A DNA stretch of 64,000 bases from Dictyobacter arantiisoli (GTDB lineage Bacteria; Chloroflexota; Ktedonobacteria; Ktedonobacterales; Ktedonobacteraceae). The notes below the pieces were generated by a model, which had not been told where the DNA came from, made no database searches, and worked only from the letters and a program-made list of their open reading frames with translations. The stretch spans positions 1-64,000 of the forward strand of contig NZ_BIXY01000024.1 of the NCBI RefSeq assembly GCF_008326305.1, given 5' to 3'. Numbering within the stretch: the first letter of the stretch is position 1; every line of letters starts with the position of its first letter. Shown piece by piece: positions 5,819 through 62,175 of the stretch. The position numbers and the translations under genes were made by a program.

Positions 5819-8800
5819 TCACATTAAGGTCTGTTTTGTTTGGTTTTCTTCCGTGTTTTCTTGTGCTCCGAGGGTGATGAGCATCGCTTTCTGTGTGGCG
5901 TTTAGCCCTCGCGCTCCTGTGATGTTCATGCGTTCATAGGGTCGATCGCTTTGCCATGTTTGCAGGCAGTTTCCACTCTGTGCATCCCATTGTTTGATCG
6001 TGCCGTCGTGGCTACCGCTTAAGAGCGTGGCATCTTGTGGATTGAAGATGACCGAGCGTATACGTTGTGTATGTCCCCGCAATGTGTGCAGACAATGCCA
6101 GTCGCTGGTATCCCATAGACGGATGGTATGGTCTTCACTGCCGCTGGCAAGCAGGCTGCCATCAGGACTAAAGGCCAGGCTGTAGATACGATCACTATGT
6201 CCACTGAGCGTCTTGATGGGATTATTGTGTTCCTGGTGAAGTTGCCAGAGGAAGATATCGTGATCGTCACCTCCGCTGACCAGTAGATTTCGTTGGGCAT
6301 CGAAGGCGAGGGCCTGGATCTTGCCCTTATGTCCTGGCAGGCGCTCACTACAGTGACGCGTCGTGAGATCCCAGAGGAAGATATCGCGTTCGTTGCCGCC
6401 GCTGGCGAGGGTTGTATCATTCAGAAAAGTCACAGCGCGGATGCGATCATGATGTCCCGTTAACACATAGAGGTGCCGGGCCGTCTGGACATCCCATAGA
6501 TGTATTTCCTGATCATCCCCGACACTTGCCAGTAGTTTGCTATTGGGACTGAAGGCGACGGCGCGTACTCGCCCTCCCTGGTTGGTGAGCTTGCGTAGAC
6601 TGTAATTGTCATGCACATTCCAGAAACCAACCATATGATCATCGCAACCAGTGGCAAACGTGCTCCCATCAGGGCTGAAGGCCATGCTATAGATCCAACT
6701 CTTGTGTTTATCTACGCTGTTCAGGCAACGTTTACTCGCTATCTCCCAGAATTTGACGGTGAGGTTCTCCCCATTCCCTGCCAGTACACGACCATCAGGA
6801 CTGGCAGCCACGGCATAGACCCAGCTACTATGTCCCTGTAAGGTCATGATGCATTGCCGATGTTTCACATCCCAGATACGAATGGCCTGATCGTCACCTC
6901 CGCTGACAATCAGCGAGCCATCGGCGCTATAGACAATGGCCCGTATGCGATTACGATGCCCTTCCAGGATCGCTAGATTGTGTCCGCTCTCTACATCCCA
7001 GATACGAATGGCATAGTTTTCGTCTCCACCGGCAATCTGCCTGCCATCAGGACTAAACGCGACCTCTCTAATCCGGCTGACCGGTTCGGTTGCTATATTC
7101 CTATATTTACCTGTTGCAACATCCCAGAAGCGCACAATCTGTTTATCACTACCGCTGGCGATTGTCTGTCCATCAGAACTGAGCGCAAGGGAATAGATAT
7201 GTCCTTGCGTATTTTGCAGATTATGTACAGGTTCCCTGGTAGCTAGATCCCAGACAATAACATTGGTCCCTTCGCTCCCGCTGATCAGGAGCAAGCTATC
7301 GGGACTGAAGATAACCGAGCGAATTAACTCGTTGTGGCCTGCGAATGTATGCAAACACTGTCCGCTGGCGATATCCCACAGGTAGACCAGTTGATCATCG
7401 CCACCGCTGGCGAGTAGTGTGCCATCGGGACTAAACGTGACGCTATAGATCCTGCCTTGTTGTCCCTGAAAAATTTTGATACACTGCTCGCTAGCAACAT
7501 CCCACAGACGAATTCCCTGATCATCGCTCCCGCTCGCCAGCCAGCGCCCATCGGGACTGAACGCAATCGTGCGAATCCAATCTGTATGCCCGGTCAGGCT
7601 CGAGAGCGGTGTCCCGGCGGGCAGTTGCCAGAGCTCAATCGTTCCATTCGCGGTGCCCGCAGCCAGCCAGGTCTGGTCTGGTGAGAGCGCCAGGCTGAGG
7701 ATATTTCCAAATGACTCGGTGAAGCTACAGGTTGCCAGATCGGTATCGGAAAAATCTATATCCTCTAGTCGGACATCTTGTAGAAATGCCTGTCGAATTA
7801 CGAGATGCGAGAAGTTGTAGCCTTGCAGAGAACCGCCTGTCTGGATGAGGAGATTGAGGATATTGCCTACGCCATAGCCAGTGTTGGAGATGGTGCTGAA
7901 GCGCCAATGATCGAGTAAACGTTCCCATTTGCGTTTGCTCTCCTCTGGTCCAAAGGTGATGTGCATATAGGAGGCCAGCGGTTCCAGAAGGAGTTTGATT
8001 TGCGTCCGGCGTAGATAATCTCTGCTTTCAGCCTTCATCAACGCATGGCTCTGAAAGAGCTGTGGCGTCTCACTGTGTAGCTCTTGTTGTATCTGGTGGA
8101 GCAGGCGTGCCGTTATATATTCCATAATCACGGCCTGGAGTGAAAAGAAGGCGTTGTTATGGCTCTCGACCAATGAACGCCGCCGCAGCGACTTGAGGGC
8201 TTCGATGAAAATGCCCGCAGGAATGACACGGATGATATCGGAGCGCAGCGTTTCCAGGCTGGTCTGCTCCCGCTCGATAGCCAGCCAGTAGAGGATCTCT
8301 TGTTCCAGGGGCGATGAGCGTTGAAATTGTTGATCCAATAATTCTTGCATATCGCCTACGATAAGCTCTGATTGGGCGAGGAACGCGGCAATATCGCCAT
8401 GGAATAGCTCACGCAGTGGCTCTGAGGCCAGCTTCATTGCCAATGGATTGCCCGAATAGAGATGGGTAAAACGCTGCCATGTCTCATCATTCCCAAACAG
8501 ATCCTCTCCTGAGAGAATGTTGCGCGCTTCACGTTGCGCTACCCCTTGCAATTGGAGCGAGCGTACCGCAAGCGCTTTCCCTTCCAGACGCGCCAGCTCA
8601 CGCGGTTTCTCCCGGCTCGTCAGCAACAGGCAGCTTTGATGCTGGGTACTGCCCACCAGTTCTAGCAAGCGACCAAATCCCTGATACTCGTCGCGGTAAT
8701 AGCCAGCATTATTGCCATCCTGTAAGACCGACTCAAAATTATCCAGTACCAGCAGGCAACGATAGCGACGTAAATAGTTGATCAGCAGCATAATTTGTGC

Positions 8801-9559
8801 ATCGATATGTTGTGGAATGGTGGGATGCATAGGATCGGGCCAGAGCTGAAAGAAGTGCGTTAAAATATCAATCAGGGGTGGCGTATTCTGCAATGTACGC
8901 CAGAAGATCATATCAAAGTGTGGGCTGACCTGTTGTGCCAGTGTCAGCGTCAGCGCAGTCTTGCCCACGCCGCCCAGTCCCTGGATGACGATCAGCCGGC
9001 AACGCTCCTGTTCAATCCATTGTTGCAAAGTTGCCAATTCATGCGTCCGACCATAGAAATGCTCGGCCGTGGGTGCCTCGCCCCAATCGCTCCGCGGAGG
9101 TTCCGTTCCCTTTTTAACGTCTGGCATCAGTAGTCCACTGGTCTGGCGTACCATCTGTGCTTCTGGCGGGCGTTCCTCCAACGTTGCCGTCATGGTAGAT
9201 GACGTGGCGAGCGCATTGATCTGTACTGGTTGTTCATATGGCAAGGGGGCAGTTTGCAGGGCTGGCTGCGCAGCCTCGCCTGTGGCAACTGTCGAGCTGT
9301 GCCATTGGAAGAAATTGACCAGTAGCGTGAGGATACTGACAACCATACCTACGACGAGCGCCAAAACTGATAGTGTTGTCCCACCCGTCAGCACTCCCTG
9401 CTGTTTAATGACCAGCAAGGCTACCAGCACTATAATAATCACGGCCATGACACAGATGCTCGCGATGAGCCAGGCCAGCCGCACACGCCGCCGATGCTTC
9501 GCCGTGTCGGATGATAAGGATTGCGTTTGTTGCTGTTGCGCTTGATGAGATGATGGCAT
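5819..9559 (-). CDS. Membrane-anchored NB-ARC/STAND ATPase with 14 WD40 repeats
   Basis: 1246 residues. A Gln-rich N-terminus is followed by two membrane helices (about 28-51 and 61-84), a low-complexity linker, an NB-ARC-type NTPase (about 160-440; Walker A GLGGVGKT at 194-201, Walker B LLVLDNFE), a helical region and 14 WD40 repeats, enough for two seven-blade propellers. This is sensor/ATPase architecture like that of STAND signalling proteins, here tethered to the membrane. It is the last gene of a six-gene minus-strand run, 39 nt after the previous stop. I chose ATG 9559 because AGGA lies 6 nt upstream; ATG 9577 (six residues longer) has no spaced ribosome site. No catalytic effector domain is visible, so the effector may be another protein of the locus. 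Confidence 0.88.
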   Translation of the reverse strand: MPSSHQAQQQQTQSLSSDTAKHRRRVRLAWLIASICVMAVIIIVLVALLVIKQQGVLTGGTTLSVLALVVGMVVSILTLLVNFFQWHSSTVATGEAAQPALQTAPLPYEQPVQINALATSSTMTATLEERPPEAQMVRQTSGLLMPDVKKGTEPPRSDWGEAPTAEHFYGRTHELATLQQWIEQERCRLIVIQGLGGVGKTALTLTLAQQVSPHFDMIFWRTLQNTPPLIDILTHFFQLWPDPMHPTIPQHIDAQIMLLINYLRRYRCLLVLDNFESVLQDGNNAGYYRDEYQGFGRLLELVGSTQHQSCLLLTSREKPRELARLEGKALAVRSLQLQGVAQREARNILSGEDLFGNDETWQRFTHLYSGNPLAMKLASEPLRELFHGDIAAFLAQSELIVGDMQELLDQQFQRSSPLEQEILYWLAIEREQTSLETLRSDIIRVIPAGIFIEALKSLRRRSLVESHNNAFFSLQAVIMEYITARLLHQIQQELHSETPQLFQSHALMKAESRDYLRRTQIKLLLEPLASYMHITFGPEESKRKWERLLDHWRFSTISNTGYGVGNILNLLIQTGGSLQGYNFSHLVIRQAFLQDVRLEDIDFSDTDLATCSFTESFGNILSLALSPDQTWLAAGTANGTIELWQLPAGTPLSSLTGHTDWIRTIAFSPDGRWLASGSDDQGIRLWDVASEQCIKIFQGQQGRIYSVTFSPDGTLLASGGDDQLVYLWDIASGQCLHTFAGHNELIRSVIFSPDSLLLISGSEGTNVIVWDLATREPVHNLQNTQGHIYSLALSSDGQTIASGSDKQIVRFWDVATGKYRNIATEPVSRIREVAFSPDGRQIAGGDENYAIRIWDVESGHNLAILEGHRNRIRAIVYSADGSLIVSGGDDQAIRIWDVKHRQCIMTLQGHSSWVYAVAASPDGRVLAGNGENLTVKFWEIASKRCLNSVDKHKSWIYSMAFSPDGSTFATGCDDHMVGFWNVHDNYSLRKLTNQGGRVRAVAFSPNSKLLASVGDDQEIHLWDVQTARHLYVLTGHHDRIRAVTFLNDTTLASGGNERDIFLWDLTTRHCSERLPGHKGKIQALAFDAQRNLLVSGGDDHDIFLWQLHQEHNNPIKTLSGHSDRIYSLAFSPDGSLLASGSEDHTIRLWDTSDWHCLHTLRGHTQRIRSVIFNPQDATLLSGSHDGTIKQWDAQSGNCLQTWQSDRPYERMNITGARGLNATQKAMLITLGAQENTEENQTKQTLM

Positions 9560-9598
9560 ATTATTTCCTGGCTCCATCTCTATACTATCTATAAAGTA

Positions 9599-11242
9599 TT
9601 AATCAATAAATTTCATTTTTTGGAGGGTATGGAGAGTAAATTGCGCGGCATTTCTAGCAGCCAGAAGCTGATCTTGCTCTTTATGTTGATTTCCCTTATT
9701 TCCATCTCCCCAGTCGCAGATTGCCTTAACCAGCATCCAGTTAATTTTATAACGTTGCGCGACCGAATACAAGCCTGAACCTTCCATCTCTCCACCGAGC
9801 GCTTCCGGCTCAATCTGTCGTAACCGAGCGCATAGCGCCTGATTATCGACCAGCTTCTCACCTGAGAAAAGTAAGCCTGTTTCTACGCGGGCCCCTTTCC
9901 AGCTTAATTGCGCACTTTTGAAGCGGTTAATCAGAAAGGTTGAGGTGGATGGTCTATCTCCACGCGGAATGATGACCTCCTGCGCAGGATTCTGAGGGTC
10001 GGTGCCTACACGTTGTTGATCATAGAGGCGAATCTTATGGGCAACCAGAATCGTTCCTAGCTGTTGTTTGTCTGGACGCAGACCAAAAGCAATCCCCACC
10101 ATAATGATCGATGATGGATGGAGCATGCGTATACCCTCTTCGATGGTTAACGTAGAGCCGCCCGGCCCGATGGCACCCATCTCGGTTTGTAGCAGAAAGA
10201 CGCGTGCCCCATTGATCATGCCCAGGTCGTGATAGACATTGTTGGCGATAGGATAGCTCTGTGGCTGGCGCTTCAGTCTCTTTTTGCATGTCTCAAAAAC
10301 CGCCTGCGTCTCTGTCTCTGTCACCGTCACCAACAATACATCTGCCCTTAACGGCTGATCGGCTCTTGTCTGGTCTATGGGTAATGTGACCATCTGCTCA
10401 GTAGTGCCTTTGGAACGCCGCGTTGTATCTGATTGCTTGTTTGAAAGCAGTTTTTCCAGGGTCGTAAAGAAGCTGGCAAACGCGCCATATGGCCCTGCGA
10501 TAGTAAATGCTTCCGTTTCCTGCGCTCGGTTGTCCAGCAAGTGAAGTATCAGATCATCCGCCACAGGTGGTTGCTCCACCACATAATAGGTGCTTGTTTG
10601 TTTGTGATTTTGATCGAATTGTTTATATATATCAATATCAAGCTCCAGCCCACCAACGATCAAGAGATCCTGGTTTAGCGTGCGCCTGATAGGCCCTTTC
10701 AGGGCAGGACGGGGTTCAAAAAATTCTGGAAACGTCTCGGGAAGCACCCTATCCTGCAAGCTGCCATGCAATTTCACAATACGCACCAATTGCGTCCCCT
10801 GTAAAGGCTCATCCAATTGCTGCGCAATATAGCCATCATTGTGTCGATCTACTATCAGAGTTTGAATTGTGTATGGATCTTTTCCCTCTTCTATGAGTAG
10901 CTCTTCGAGAGCATGTTCCAGTCGGGAGTCAAGGTTGGTGGTCAGGATGGTGCGGAAGTAGCCTTGTATGATCAGGCGCGCCAGGGCACGATAGCCGATT
11001 GCTTGCTGTTGATCCTGCTCCTCTGCCAGTGGCTTGAGTGCGATCAGACGATCGGGATAGCCACGATGGCGCAAATATTGGCAGAAGCCATGCCAGTTGG
11101 GGGTATGCGCGATCCGTTGTAACATGCCCGGTGTTAATGAGAGTGTGGACGATAAGAGCAGGTTGTATGGTCGAGGAGGGGATTCCTGAAGGCGCTGCAC
11201 CATGATTTGCGCCAATTCTGTCAACTGGTATGGTGGTTCCAT
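9599..11242 (-). CDS. SIR2-like domain fused to nucleoside phosphorylase/nucleosidase domain
   Basis: 547 residues in two parts. Residues 1-280 are SIR2-like: TTNLDSRLEHAL supplies the conserved Asn and VKLHGSLQ the catalytic His, so NAD binding and hydrolysis are plausible. Residues 300-547 match the PNP/MTA-SAH nucleosidase superfamily, with MGAIGPGGS, IIMVGIAFGLR, EALGGEMEGSGLYSVA (the ME/EME ribose-binding motif) and a CDWGDG segment. Related domain pairs act in prokaryotic conflict systems, where SIR2 depletes NAD and the nucleosidase-like part is a sensor or second effector; that role is inferred. ATG 11242 has AAGGAG at 7 nt. The frame stays open for 56 more codons upstream, overlapping the preceding gene. 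It sits 145 nt after the radical SAM gene. Confidence 0.85.
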   Translation of the reverse strand: MEPPYQLTELAQIMVQRLQESPPRPYNLLLSSTLSLTPGMLQRIAHTPNWHGFCQYLRHRGYPDRLIALKPLAEEQDQQQAIGYRALARLIIQGYFRTILTTNLDSRLEHALEELLIEEGKDPYTIQTLIVDRHNDGYIAQQLDEPLQGTQLVRIVKLHGSLQDRVLPETFPEFFEPRPALKGPIRRTLNQDLLIVGGLELDIDIYKQFDQNHKQTSTYYVVEQPPVADDLILHLLDNRAQETEAFTIAGPYGAFASFFTTLEKLLSNKQSDTTRRSKGTTEQMVTLPIDQTRADQPLRADVLLVTVTETETQAVFETCKKRLKRQPQSYPIANNVYHDLGMINGARVFLLQTEMGAIGPGGSTLTIEEGIRMLHPSSIIMVGIAFGLRPDKQQLGTILVAHKIRLYDQQRVGTDPQNPAQEVIIPRGDRPSTSTFLINRFKSAQLSWKGARVETGLLFSGEKLVDNQALCARLRQIEPEALGGEMEGSGLYSVAQRYKINWMLVKAICDWGDGNKGNQHKEQDQLLAARNAAQFTLHTLQKMKFID

Positions 11243-11387
11243 CCATTCACTCCTTGTAGCAAGATGAGGCGTCTCATATACAAAATTTTTGTTAGATAGG
11301 ATAGTTTTTATATTTATTGTCTTCGATCTATAGGATTGCAGGTGGGTAGCTTGTTGATAGTCTGGCCTGTTTTTCGATAGGGTATGT

Positions 11388-12956
11388 CTATATTTCGATT
11401 GGCGACACATATTTGAGTAAGCGTAGCGCCTCCAGGCGCAGGGCAGCGGGGAAAAGTGCCTTATAGATTGCGCAATTGGGTGACTTGATGTCGCTGCGTC
11501 CGGTCATGCGGTAGGTGAGCATTGCACAGCCGCCTGAACACCAGTTGCGCCACTCACAGTCCCGACAGCCCTCCTTTTCCTGGACTGCGACCGCTTGAAC
11601 GCCGCGTCGTTCAGCACGAATAACCCGTAAGGGATTCTCTGCTGCTATCGTGGTCAGCGGATTGGCGATTTCCATCTGACAACTGGCGATACCTCCTCGC
11701 TGGTTAATTGCCAGATAGTCCCGCCCTACACCGCAATGATACGTACGTGAACCGTACATCTTTGTCTTATCAACCAGCGCATCCAGCAGCGTGGATGCGG
11801 GTAAGTGTTTTTCAATATAGGTGAACGCCGCATGCATGCCCTGAATCATCTGGGTATCACTGAACTGGAGATCCGTCAGACGAGATGAGCAGTCATTATC
11901 CCGATAGTAGCTTAGTCCAAATGGCAGATCGCGTGCAAGAATATAGCCGAGCAACTCTGGGAGCCGGGCCAGATTGCGCTGTGTCACGGTCACATTGATG
12001 CTGGGCACCAATCCATGTTGTAGCAAGCGTGTAATCGTGCGATCCACTAACGCGAACGAGCCCGCACCATTGATCAATGGTCGCTGCTGATCATGGTCGG
12101 CAGCGATACCATCCAATGAAAGAGCGACATTGATATGGCGCTCTTTCAACTGCTCGATCATGCGTACTGGAAAGGCCGCGCCATTACTGATCATGCCCGC
12201 AACCAGTGTCAGGCCATGTATCTCAGTCTGCTGTAGAGCATAATCATGGGTTGCGATCACCTGTGGCAGGCGCAGTGTTGCTTCACCGCCCGCATAGGTA
12301 AGGTGAATGCCCTGATAACCATTCAGGAGAGCCGAGCGGATCACTGCATCAACCGAACGTCTCATCGTATCCTCAGCCATATGCTCGCTATCTTTTGCCA
12401 CATAACAATAATGACAACGTAAATTGCAGGCATTTGTCACATGCAGCCAGACCGCGAGCATTTGCTTATCATCCTGTAAAGAATGGGATGTGGCCTGTGT
12501 GGACGCTGCGCGAGCTGTAAGATCTTGTAAAAAGTCCAGTTCTGTCAGCAAGGATACCGCTCGTGCTACTCTTAGCGGCTCGATTGTTGCCTCTTCGCAT
12601 ACTTCCTGAAGCGTACGTGGAAGGGTAAAACGTTGGAGTAAAGCGAAGGCTGGCTCATCCAATACCGCTAGCTTGCCGGAGCCAGTGGGATTACAGATGA
12701 GCCAGCGCTTATCCTGATCATGCTGGATGTGCAATGCATTGGCGATGACGAAGGTATGTTGATATAACTGCATGAGCTCTGGTACGGTAGATGTCAGGGC
12801 TACTGGTACGCTCACCGCTGCATGGGTATTCGTGGCGTTATGGCCCAGGCCAGGCGTTGCGTTGTGGTTACTACATTCATTGGGACACATCATACTAGCA
12901 TTTCCCGCATGTGTGATCTGTGCCAGGAGCGCTGTGTCGAGCCAAATATGTATCAC
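11388..12956 (-). CDS. Radical SAM/SPASM domain protein
   Basis: 522 residues. Residues 80-140 look like a small helical N-domain of the kind that precedes SPASM maturases (a PqqD-like peptide-binding role is possible). Residues 165-390 are the radical SAM core with CNLRCHYC (C177, C181, C184) for the SAM-binding 4Fe-4S cluster and the YAGGEATL motif. Residues 400-505 carry SPASM-type cysteines for auxiliary clusters (CGVGRDYL, ASCQ, CRDCEWRNWCSGGC, NCAIYK). Such enzymes modify ribosomal peptides or proteins. No precursor peptide is visible beside it; its neighbours are STAND and SIR2 genes, which is unusual. The start is uncertain: GTG 12956, or the ATG pair 22-23 codons later. Confidence 0.85.
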   Translation of the reverse strand: MIHIWLDTALLAQITHAGNASMMCPNECSNHNATPGLGHNATNTHAAVSVPVALTSTVPELMQLYQHTFVIANALHIQHDQDKRWLICNPTGSGKLAVLDEPAFALLQRFTLPRTLQEVCEEATIEPLRVARAVSLLTELDFLQDLTARAASTQATSHSLQDDKQMLAVWLHVTNACNLRCHYCYVAKDSEHMAEDTMRRSVDAVIRSALLNGYQGIHLTYAGGEATLRLPQVIATHDYALQQTEIHGLTLVAGMISNGAAFPVRMIEQLKERHINVALSLDGIAADHDQQRPLINGAGSFALVDRTITRLLQHGLVPSINVTVTQRNLARLPELLGYILARDLPFGLSYYRDNDCSSRLTDLQFSDTQMIQGMHAAFTYIEKHLPASTLLDALVDKTKMYGSRTYHCGVGRDYLAINQRGGIASCQMEIANPLTTIAAENPLRVIRAERRGVQAVAVQEKEGCRDCEWRNWCSGGCAMLTYRMTGRSDIKSPNCAIYKALFPAALRLEALRLLKYVSPIEI

Positions 12957-60731: not shown

Positions 60732-61343
60732 ATGGCATTTGAACTTCCCCCGCTTCCTTATGGCTACGATGCTCTGGAGCCATATATTGATGCTCAAACA
60801 ATGCAGATTCATCATGATAAGCATCATGGAACGTATGTCACAAATTTAAATAAAGCTCTCGCCGATGATCTCGGGCTGACGGAGCGTTCCCTTGAGCAGC
60901 TATTAATGAATCTGGAGGAGATACCAGAGGCGATCCGTACAGCCGTTCGGAACAATGGTGGTGGACATGCGAATCATAGCCTCTTCTGGCGGATCTTGAA
61001 GCCTGCCGGTGGTGGGGAACCCACGGGAGAATTAGGACATCAGATTGAGCATACCTTCGGTTCTTTTGATGAATTTAAGCAGCGTTTTACTGAAGCTGCT
61101 ACGAAACGTTTTGGTTCAGGCTGGGCCTGGCTCGCCAGCGACCGCAATGGTAATATCCTGATTACGTCAACAGCCAACCAGGACAGTCCCTATATGGATA
61201 GTCTGTATCCATTGTTGGGCTTGGATGTCTGGGAGCATGCTTATTATCTCAAATATCAGAATCGCCGCCCAGAATATATCAGTGCTTTCTGGAATTTAGT
61301 GAACTGGGATGAGGTGGCACGTCATTATGCGTTGGCACGCTAG
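60732..61343 (+). CDS. Superoxide dismutase, Fe/Mn type
   Basis: 203 residues, normal length. Metal ligands: His in MQIHHDKHH, His in NHSLFWR, Asp and His in DVWEHAYYL. Manganese is more likely, given the GSGWAWLA motif, but iron or cambialistic use is possible. No signal peptide, so cytosolic. ATG 60732 has AAAGGAAGG upstream. Stands alone after the hutI relic. Confidence 0.95.
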
Positions 61344-61501
61344 TGGCTGCGTGATACACAATACCTACTCAAAATAGTGAGATAAGCGCCTGCGCAGATA
61401 CAAAGTGTGAGGGCTACGTGATCTCTTGTCGTATAGTGATGAGATTGCGTAGCCCTCTGTGTTGGAGGGAGAATTTCTACCCGACGGTGCGTCGCAAGCT
61501 G

Positions 61502-61774
61502 TTAGCGGCGATGTCCGAAGCGGCGATGTCCGAAGCGGCGATGTCCGAAGCGGCGATGTCCGAAGCGGCGGTGCCAGAAGCGTCGATGCCCAAAGCCAAA
61601 CCCGAAGCCAAAGCCATAGCCTGTGCCACAACCGCCACCGCCACCTCCCCAACCACCTTCGACCGCTGCTAACTCATTATCGGTCAATTCAATAGCAGCC
61701 AGGGAAATCTCAGGAACATCCTGACGTGTGTCGTTGAGTACGCGCTCCGTGGAGCGGGCAAAACCGAAGCTCAT
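61502..61774 (-). CDS. Double-glycine-leader peptide with FGHRR repeats (RiPP/bacteriocin-like)
   Basis: 90 residues. The first 41 form a leader ending ELTDNELAAVEGG, the helix plus Gly-Gly site cut by C39-type transporters. The core (42-90) begins WGGGGGGCGTGYGFGFGF, has one Cys, and ends in six HRR units, mostly FGHRR, giving about 12 Arg and 6 His. Secreted cationic Gly-rich peptides can be antimicrobial. GAAAGGAT lies 6 nt before ATG 61774. No transporter, immunity or modifying gene is adjacent; the radical SAM/SPASM gene is 49 kb away. A structural or metal-binding role is possible. Confidence 0.75.
   Translation of the reverse strand: MSFGFARSTERVLNDTRQDVPEISLAAIELTDNELAAVEGGWGGGGGGCGTGYGFGFGFGFGHRRFWHRRFGHRRFGHRRFGHRRFGHRR
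61505..61594 (-). repeat. 15-bp tandem repeat in peptide gene
   Basis: Four perfect copies of GCGGCGATGTCCGAA (plus-strand reading) at 61505-61564, then two diverged copies to 61594. Each codes FGHRR on the minus strand. Unit length is a multiple of three, so copy number can change in frame. Confidence 0.92.
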
Positions 61775-62175
61775 AGGATTATCCTTTCACTGGATAGTGA
61801 TTACTTGACTATGATGAATAATAGTCTACCCCGATAATAGCTGGCGAGCGTGAAAGAAACCGTGATGACAGCGTGATACGACAACCACTTTTCGCCCCTT
61901 TTTGAATCTTGCTTGCTTCCCACTACTGCCATACAGGATGCTTCTGTCATTCAGTTCAGGAGAAAAATAAGTGGCTGTCCCTCCCAATAGAGACGCGTGC
62001 AGAGGCTAGCTATGGGAGGATTAGCAGCTTGCTTGTGCTTGTTATGTTCTCTATCGGATGGTTATATTTAGGATACGAATGTTTGTGGTCCGTGAAAATA
62101 GAGCGGAATGGATTCGTGAAATGGGAGTGTATGACGTATGACAAGAGGTGATCTGGAAAGGAGTTGTGTGGGAAG
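61775..62175. other. Intergenic region before SARP regulator
   Basis: About 400 bp. It should contain the promoter of the FGHRR peptide gene (minus) and of the regulator (plus). I see no convincing promoter, repeat or coding frame. Confidence 0.45.

What the first reader, a model, noticed from the sequence alone, without database searches (positions are those of the whole stretch)
61502..61774. Gly-Gly-leader peptide with tandem FGHRR core
A bacteriocin-type leader (ELTDNELAAVEGG) is joined to a core of Gly/Phe and Arg/His repeats coded by a 15-bp tandem repeat. I know of no described family with this core. It could be an antimicrobial, nucleic-acid-binding or metal-binding secreted peptide.
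Basis: partly seen in the sequence, partly recalled or inferred. Interest (0 to 1): 0.75.

Follow-up and report, generated by a model that had tools for sequence, protein, structure and literature searches.

The report
Secreted Gly-Gly-leader peptide, FGHRR repeats
This bacterium encodes a small peptide with a typical bacteriocin export leader fused to a Gly/Phe and His/Arg repeat; it belongs to a large, undescribed set of such secreted peptides in its bacterial family, probably antimicrobial, metal-binding or self-assembling, but untested.

Summary
It has a double-glycine leader (AIELTDNELAAVEGG) and a 49-aa core, WGGGGGGCGTGYGFGFGFGFG followed by six HRR units, the last four identical at DNA level. 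NCBIfam's bacteriocin-signal model scores it above its cut-off. A leader profile built without this peptide finds it at E 5e-8 in its own genome, and has no match in two sister families of the order.

It is not alone. The loci read from five genomes of its genus hold 31 distinct such peptides: short GG leader, and a Gly/aromatic plus His/Arg core poor in Ser, Thr and Lys. HRR repeats recur in three of them. In three sister genomes such peptides sit directly before an HlyD-type adaptor and a C39-peptidase ABC exporter, with no LanM. The window peptide is an orphan: no exporter or maturase was found near it.

Best reading: a C39-cleaved, probably unmodified, strongly basic secreted peptide (net charge about +12), working like a class II bacteriocin or a Gly/His-rich antimicrobial peptide. 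Export is supported by homology; the activity is inferred. New variant of a known kind.

The parts
61502..61774 (-). precursor peptide gene, 90 aa, ATG to TAA
   Evidence: leader homologues
61652..61774 (-). leader, residues 1-41, ending in the double glycine (GG at residues 40-41)
   Evidence: TIGR01847 on residues 29-41, 17.2 bits, cut-off 15.7; profile A3 35.8 bits
61505..61651 (-). predicted exported core, residues 42-90 (49 aa, calculated 5749 Da, pI 12, about +12 at pH 7)
   Evidence: calculated; cleavage site inferred from the leader family
61504..61596 (-). 15-bp tandem repeat, 6.2 copies, coding FGHRR/FWHRR
   Evidence: codon table
61775..61795 (-). ribosome-binding site GAAAGGA upstream of the ATG
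   Evidence: same site before most relatives checked
61409..61460 (.). strong hairpin between the convergent SodA and peptide genes, possible two-way terminator
   Evidence: RNA fold -39.0 and -30.7 kcal/mol for the two strands; no T-run terminator by the consensus scan

Best explanation
The gene encodes the precursor of a secreted, ribosomally made, probably linear peptide. Inferred steps: the leader is recognised by the C39 peptidase domain of an ABC exporter encoded elsewhere in the genome, it is cut after the double glycine, and the 49-aa core leaves the cell. The core has a flexible Gly/Phe stretch and an Arg/His repeat tail carrying about +12 charge. It most likely acts outside the cell by binding anionic surfaces (membranes, cell walls), perhaps with Zn or Cu bound through His: a bacteriocin-like antimicrobial peptide. 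Shown by sequence: coding, and membership of the double-glycine leader group. Suggested by relatives: C39 export without LanM. Inferred only: the activity.
For: Leader above the curated cut-off for bacteriocin_sig. The profile without this peptide finds it at E 5e-8 in its own genome and has no match in families f2 and f4 of the order. Leaders of paralogues in two sister genomes show pN/pS 0.20-0.54. Peptides of the same type lie directly upstream of an HlyD-type adaptor and a C39 ABC exporter without LanM in G002, G003 and G004, and similarly in G008 and G009. The own genome has four C39 exporters, only one of them beside a LanM. HRR repeats recur in relatives: GHRRFFHRRFFHRRRWW and GHRRWGWGHRRW in G003, NDHRRY x4 in G002. 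Ser+Thr is 3.2% of type-B cores against 13.3% in the LanM-type cores, so lanthionine rings are unlikely to be the point.
Against: No exporter, immunity or maturation gene was recognised near the window peptide, and the C39 and LanM searches gave no hit on its contig. No syntenic copy was found in the genus. No activity, transcript or peptide data exist. The profiles were built from sequences first found with the window peptide, so their support is not wholly independent. Some relatives have acidic cores, so a cationic membrane-active role cannot hold for all.
Confidence: 0.5

Rival explanations
1. Exported self-assembling or matrix peptide: the Gly/aromatic stretch and the FGHRR pentapeptides condense or form fibrils outside the cell, controlled by pH or metal, as a surface coat or glue rather than a weapon.
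For: 31 type-B cores of the genus share Gly 37%, aromatic 21%, His 11.6%, Arg 6.9%, with Lys 7 against Arg 118 residues. Four tandem GHGLY pentapeptides of squid beak protein suffice for phase separation (PMC6884462); shepherin I forms fibrils with Zn (PMC10698721).
Against: Analogy of composition only; bacteriocin-type leaders usually carry signals or antimicrobials; no gene for matrix or spore coat was recognised nearby.
Confidence: 0.22
2. RiPP modified in trans: LanM of C4 or C29, or another maturase, modifies the core before export, as one ProcM serves many scattered prochlorosin genes.
For: Leader end resembles that of the C4 peptides, which pass TIGR03898 and lie beside LanM; the own genome has two LanM.
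Against: TIGR03898 not passed (12.3 against 23.5 bits); the core has one Thr and one Cys, Cys first, two residues apart; related peptides sit with C39 exporters without LanM. Maturases other than LanM were not searched for genome-wide.
Confidence: 0.13
3. Metal-handling or signalling peptide: His-rich tail buffers or scavenges Zn/Cu/Ni, or the cleaved peptide is a pheromone.
For: His-rich tails are common in the set, some with Cys and Asp.
Against: Arg outnumbers His two to one in this core; no metal transporter or sensor was recognised beside it.
Confidence: 0.1
4. Decaying or silent precursor: a real former GG-leader gene whose core is drifting by repeat slippage.
For: Orphan locus without synteny; last four repeats identical in DNA.
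Against: Open frame intact, ribosome-binding site present, older repeat units differ from the consensus mainly at synonymous sites.
Confidence: 0.05

Closest known systems
Double-glycine-leader bacteriocin precursors (TIGR01847) with C39/HlyD export, as mined in cyanobacteria (PMC3140520)
   Same: Leader motif with EL...EL..V.GG; C39 ABC exporter and HlyD in related loci; many precursors with little core conservation
   Different: The window gene has no adjacent exporter; the core is Gly/aromatic then His/Arg repeats, not reported in the papers found
Mersacidin/lichenicidin-type lanthipeptide precursors (TIGR03898), including the Ktedonobacter racemifer cluster with ten precursors, two LanM and a LanT (PMC3951391)
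   Same: Similar ELTDxEL..V.G(G/A) leader end; the own genome has such a locus (C4)
   Different: No RAWKD half-leader, score below cut-off, one Thr and one Cys in the core, no LanM on the contig
Shepherin I and other Gly/His-rich antimicrobial peptides (PMC10698721)
   Same: Gly-rich with regularly spaced His; a sister peptide with GGHGGHGGHGGHGGHHH looks very alike
   Different: Plant origin, no GG leader; the window core also uses Phe and Arg. Likeness of composition, not descent
Squid beak histidine-rich proteins with GHGLY repeats (PMC6884462)
   Same: Tandem pentapeptides of Gly, His and an aromatic residue
   Different: Animal proteins; the window unit FGHRR carries two Arg. Analogy only

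Membership tests
Double-glycine-leader (bacteriocin-type) precursors | Leader with the conserved GG motif over the curated cut-off | tested here: met
   TIGR01847 17.2 bits, cut-off 15.7; profile without the window sequence E 5e-8
Double-glycine-leader (bacteriocin-type) precursors | C39 peptidase exporter present in the genome | tested here: met
   four C39 ABC exporters, none on the window's contig
Double-glycine-leader (bacteriocin-type) precursors | Cognate exporter beside the gene (usual, not required for orphan precursors) | tested here: not met
   none on the contig; met for relatives in G002, G003, G004, G008, G009
Double-glycine-leader (bacteriocin-type) precursors | Cleavage after GG and export | not testable with these tools
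   needs biochemistry or mass spectrometry
Class II bacteriocin (unmodified antimicrobial) | Antimicrobial activity and an immunity gene | tested here: inconclusive
   no immunity-like neighbour recognised by eye and by Pfam on two neighbours; activity not testable here
Mersacidin/lichenicidin lanthipeptide precursors | TIGR03898 over cut-off | tested here: not met
   12.3 bits against 23.5; the C4 peptides do pass with 61 and 62 bits
Mersacidin/lichenicidin lanthipeptide precursors | Core with several Ser/Thr and Cys, LanM nearby | tested here: not met
   one Thr, one Cys; no LanM on the contig
Microcin B17 family TOMM | NF041037 match over cut-off | tested here: not met
   not listed for the window peptide; a Gly-rich relative scores 15.1 against a cut-off of 70

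The most novel reading that the evidence does not exclude
This bacterial family has turned the GG-leader/C39 export route into a production line for secreted low-complexity peptides (Gly/aromatic plus His/Arg repeats, nearly Lys-free) that phase-separate or form metal-triggered fibrils outside the cell, as matrix or as weapon: a bacterial counterpart of shepherins or squid beak proteins.
Probability: 0.2. Interest if true: 0.85.

Novelty: new variant of a known kind. Interest (0 to 1): 0.5.

Why it matters
The leader and export route are known; the cores are not. Loci of five genomes hold 31 distinct peptides with shared chemistry (Gly, aromatic, His, Arg; little Lys, Ser, Thr) but little shared sequence. 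That makes a cheap test possible: synthesise a few cores and ask whether they kill, bind metal or condense. If they do, the group is a natural library of secreted Arg/His-aromatic peptides, with its own exporters already identified.

Tried and rejected
Plus-strand reading of the repeat (AAMSE frame, 61418-61672): rejected, because leader homology and the ribosome-binding site are on the minus strand. Lanthipeptide membership: tested, not met. FGHRR matches in genome contigs: the two opened (L091, L094) are antisense of PVAEP repeats inside long genes; the other six were not opened. Synteny through SodA: the SodA genes of three sister genomes, and the second copy on C67 of the own genome, lie beside an MFS gene; no leader peptide was seen near any of them. 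Pfam: only sub-threshold keratin-head and DUF5714 matches. Two region requests failed for length. No structure was predicted: a low-complexity core with a shallow alignment would give an uninformative model.

Full report
What is there. The finding's coordinates hold an ORF on the minus strand, 61774 to 61502, 90 aa: leader MSFGFARSTERVLNDTRQDVPEISLAAIELTDNELAAVEGG, core WGGGGGGCGTGYGFGFGFGFGHRRFWHRRFGHRRFGHRRFGHRRFGHRR. Tandem Repeats Finder gives 6.2 copies of a 15-bp unit. In codons, unit 1 (TTT GGG CAT CGA CGC) differs from unit 3 (TTC GGA CAT CGC CGC) at three synonymous sites; unit 2 changes Gly to Trp and has one synonymous change; units 3 to 6 are identical. So the tail has expanded recently, while the older units kept most of the amino-acid pattern. 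A GAAAGGA ribosome-binding site precedes the ATG, as it does for most relatives checked. A strong hairpin lies between this gene and the convergent SodA gene.

Is the leader real? NCBIfam's bacteriocin_sig (TIGR01847) matches residues 29-41 at 17.2 bits, over its cut-off of 15.7; no other family passes its cut-off. Profile A3, built from 12 relatives without the window peptide, scores it 35.8 bits; shuffles of the peptide reach at most 11.3, and the next of 700 ORFs in the window 5.9. In its own genome that profile gives E 5e-8. Over 47 genomes of the order it matches in 25: 24 of the 29 in the peptide's own family and one of family f3, while families f2 and f4 give none. Caution: most of the relatives were first found by similarity to the window peptide, so the test is not fully independent. 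Leaders of six paralogues in two sister genomes show pN/pS 0.20-0.54, which fits purifying selection on protein.

The wider set. Leader searches in the own genome find seven peptides at E below 1e-6, the window's included, and an eighth at 0.003; 24 of 29 family genomes have matches. Two kinds appear. Type A has the RAWKD...SL half-leader of mersacidin-type lanthipeptides (TIGR03898, 61-65 bits for the three tested) and is found in LanM loci. Type B, to which the window peptide belongs, lacks it. In the loci read from the five genomes of the genus, 31 distinct type-B cores (1722 aa) are 37% Gly, 21% Phe/Tyr/Trp, 11.6% His, 6.9% Arg and 3.2% Ser+Thr; Lys is 7 residues against 118 Arg, whereas Lys is 34% of Lys+Arg in long ORFs of the window. 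Of 14 cores looked at more closely, four have two or more HRR, mean 0.08 in shuffles, none of 20000 reaching four: the window's, two in G003 (L087) and one in G002 (L162, NDHRRY four times). The 14 were chosen by eye, partly for such tails, so this figure is descriptive.

Export. In G002 (L100), G003 (L099) and G004 (L101), type-B peptides lie directly upstream of a short HlyD-type adaptor and a C39 ABC exporter, with Ser/Thr-kinase-like genes around and no LanM in the stretch; G008 (L154) and G009 (L148) show similar arrangements. The adaptor and kinase labels rest on similarity between loci and on reading the sequences; the own-genome adaptor at C4, cut at the end of the fetched stretch, had no Pfam match. 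The own genome has C39 exporters at C4 (two), C46 and C87, of which only C4:62109 is beside a LanM. The window gene's contig has neither. Hence the inference: a type-B orphan served in trans by one of these exporters, most likely without lanthionine modification. Maturases other than LanM were not searched for genome-wide.

Function. Not shown. The calculated core is 5.75 kDa, pI 12, +12 at pH 7 and +17 at pH 5. By make-up it works most like Gly/His-rich antimicrobial peptides such as shepherin I, which becomes antifungal with Zn through fibrils (PMC10698721), or like squid beak proteins, where four tandem GHGLY pentapeptides phase-separate (PMC6884462). These are analogies of composition, not membership. 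I put 0.5 on a secreted bacteriocin-like antimicrobial and 0.22 on a material-forming role.

Known work. A cluster with ten precursors, two LanM and a LanT is described in Ktedonobacter racemifer (PMC3951391), and LanM clusters with GG cleavage sites in the class Ktedonobacteria (PMC6497799). C39/HlyD bacteriocin clusters with little core conservation are described in cyanobacteria (PMC3140520). None of the passages read mentions this core type; the library holds open-licence papers only.

Verdict. A real member of the double-glycine-leader group with an unusual core, part of an undescribed local expansion. New variant of a known kind; interest 0.5.

Noticed in passing
L155 (G008), 9345-12774, minus strand: Nine GG-leader peptides in a row, most with near-identical HTHKVxGSGKANFGGKG cores, next to an HlyD-type adaptor and a C39 exporter: a local amplification.
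   Followed up: no
L099, L100, L101, L158: PknB-like Ser/Thr kinase genes lie around C39 export cassettes without LanM in several genomes; role unknown.
   Followed up: no
G004:C2:955272-956396; G002:C1:8479948-8480835: LanM (DUF4135) matches broken into pieces, some with stops: likely decayed lanthipeptide synthetases, or assembly errors.
   Followed up: no
L153 (G004:C1), 8590-10869, minus strand: Three GG-leader peptides with Asp/Cys-rich then poly-His cores (DYDYDDCDHDDDDCDYDC...HHHHHHH), which look metal-binding.
   Followed up: no
window 60732-61343: The SodA gene beside the peptide is one of two copies; the other (C67) has the MFS neighbour seen beside SodA in three sister genomes.
   Followed up: partly
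L081 (own C13), L071 (G004), L087 (G003): The C13 peptide and the G003/G004 clusters share neighbours (sigma-70 factor, calcineurin-like phosphoesterase), so that peptide locus is conserved in the genus.
   Followed up: partly
31 type-B cores of the genus: Near absence of Lys (7 residues) beside 118 Arg; Lys is a third of Lys+Arg in long ORFs of the window. Cause unknown: selection for Arg, or repeat expansion from few codons.
   Followed up: partly
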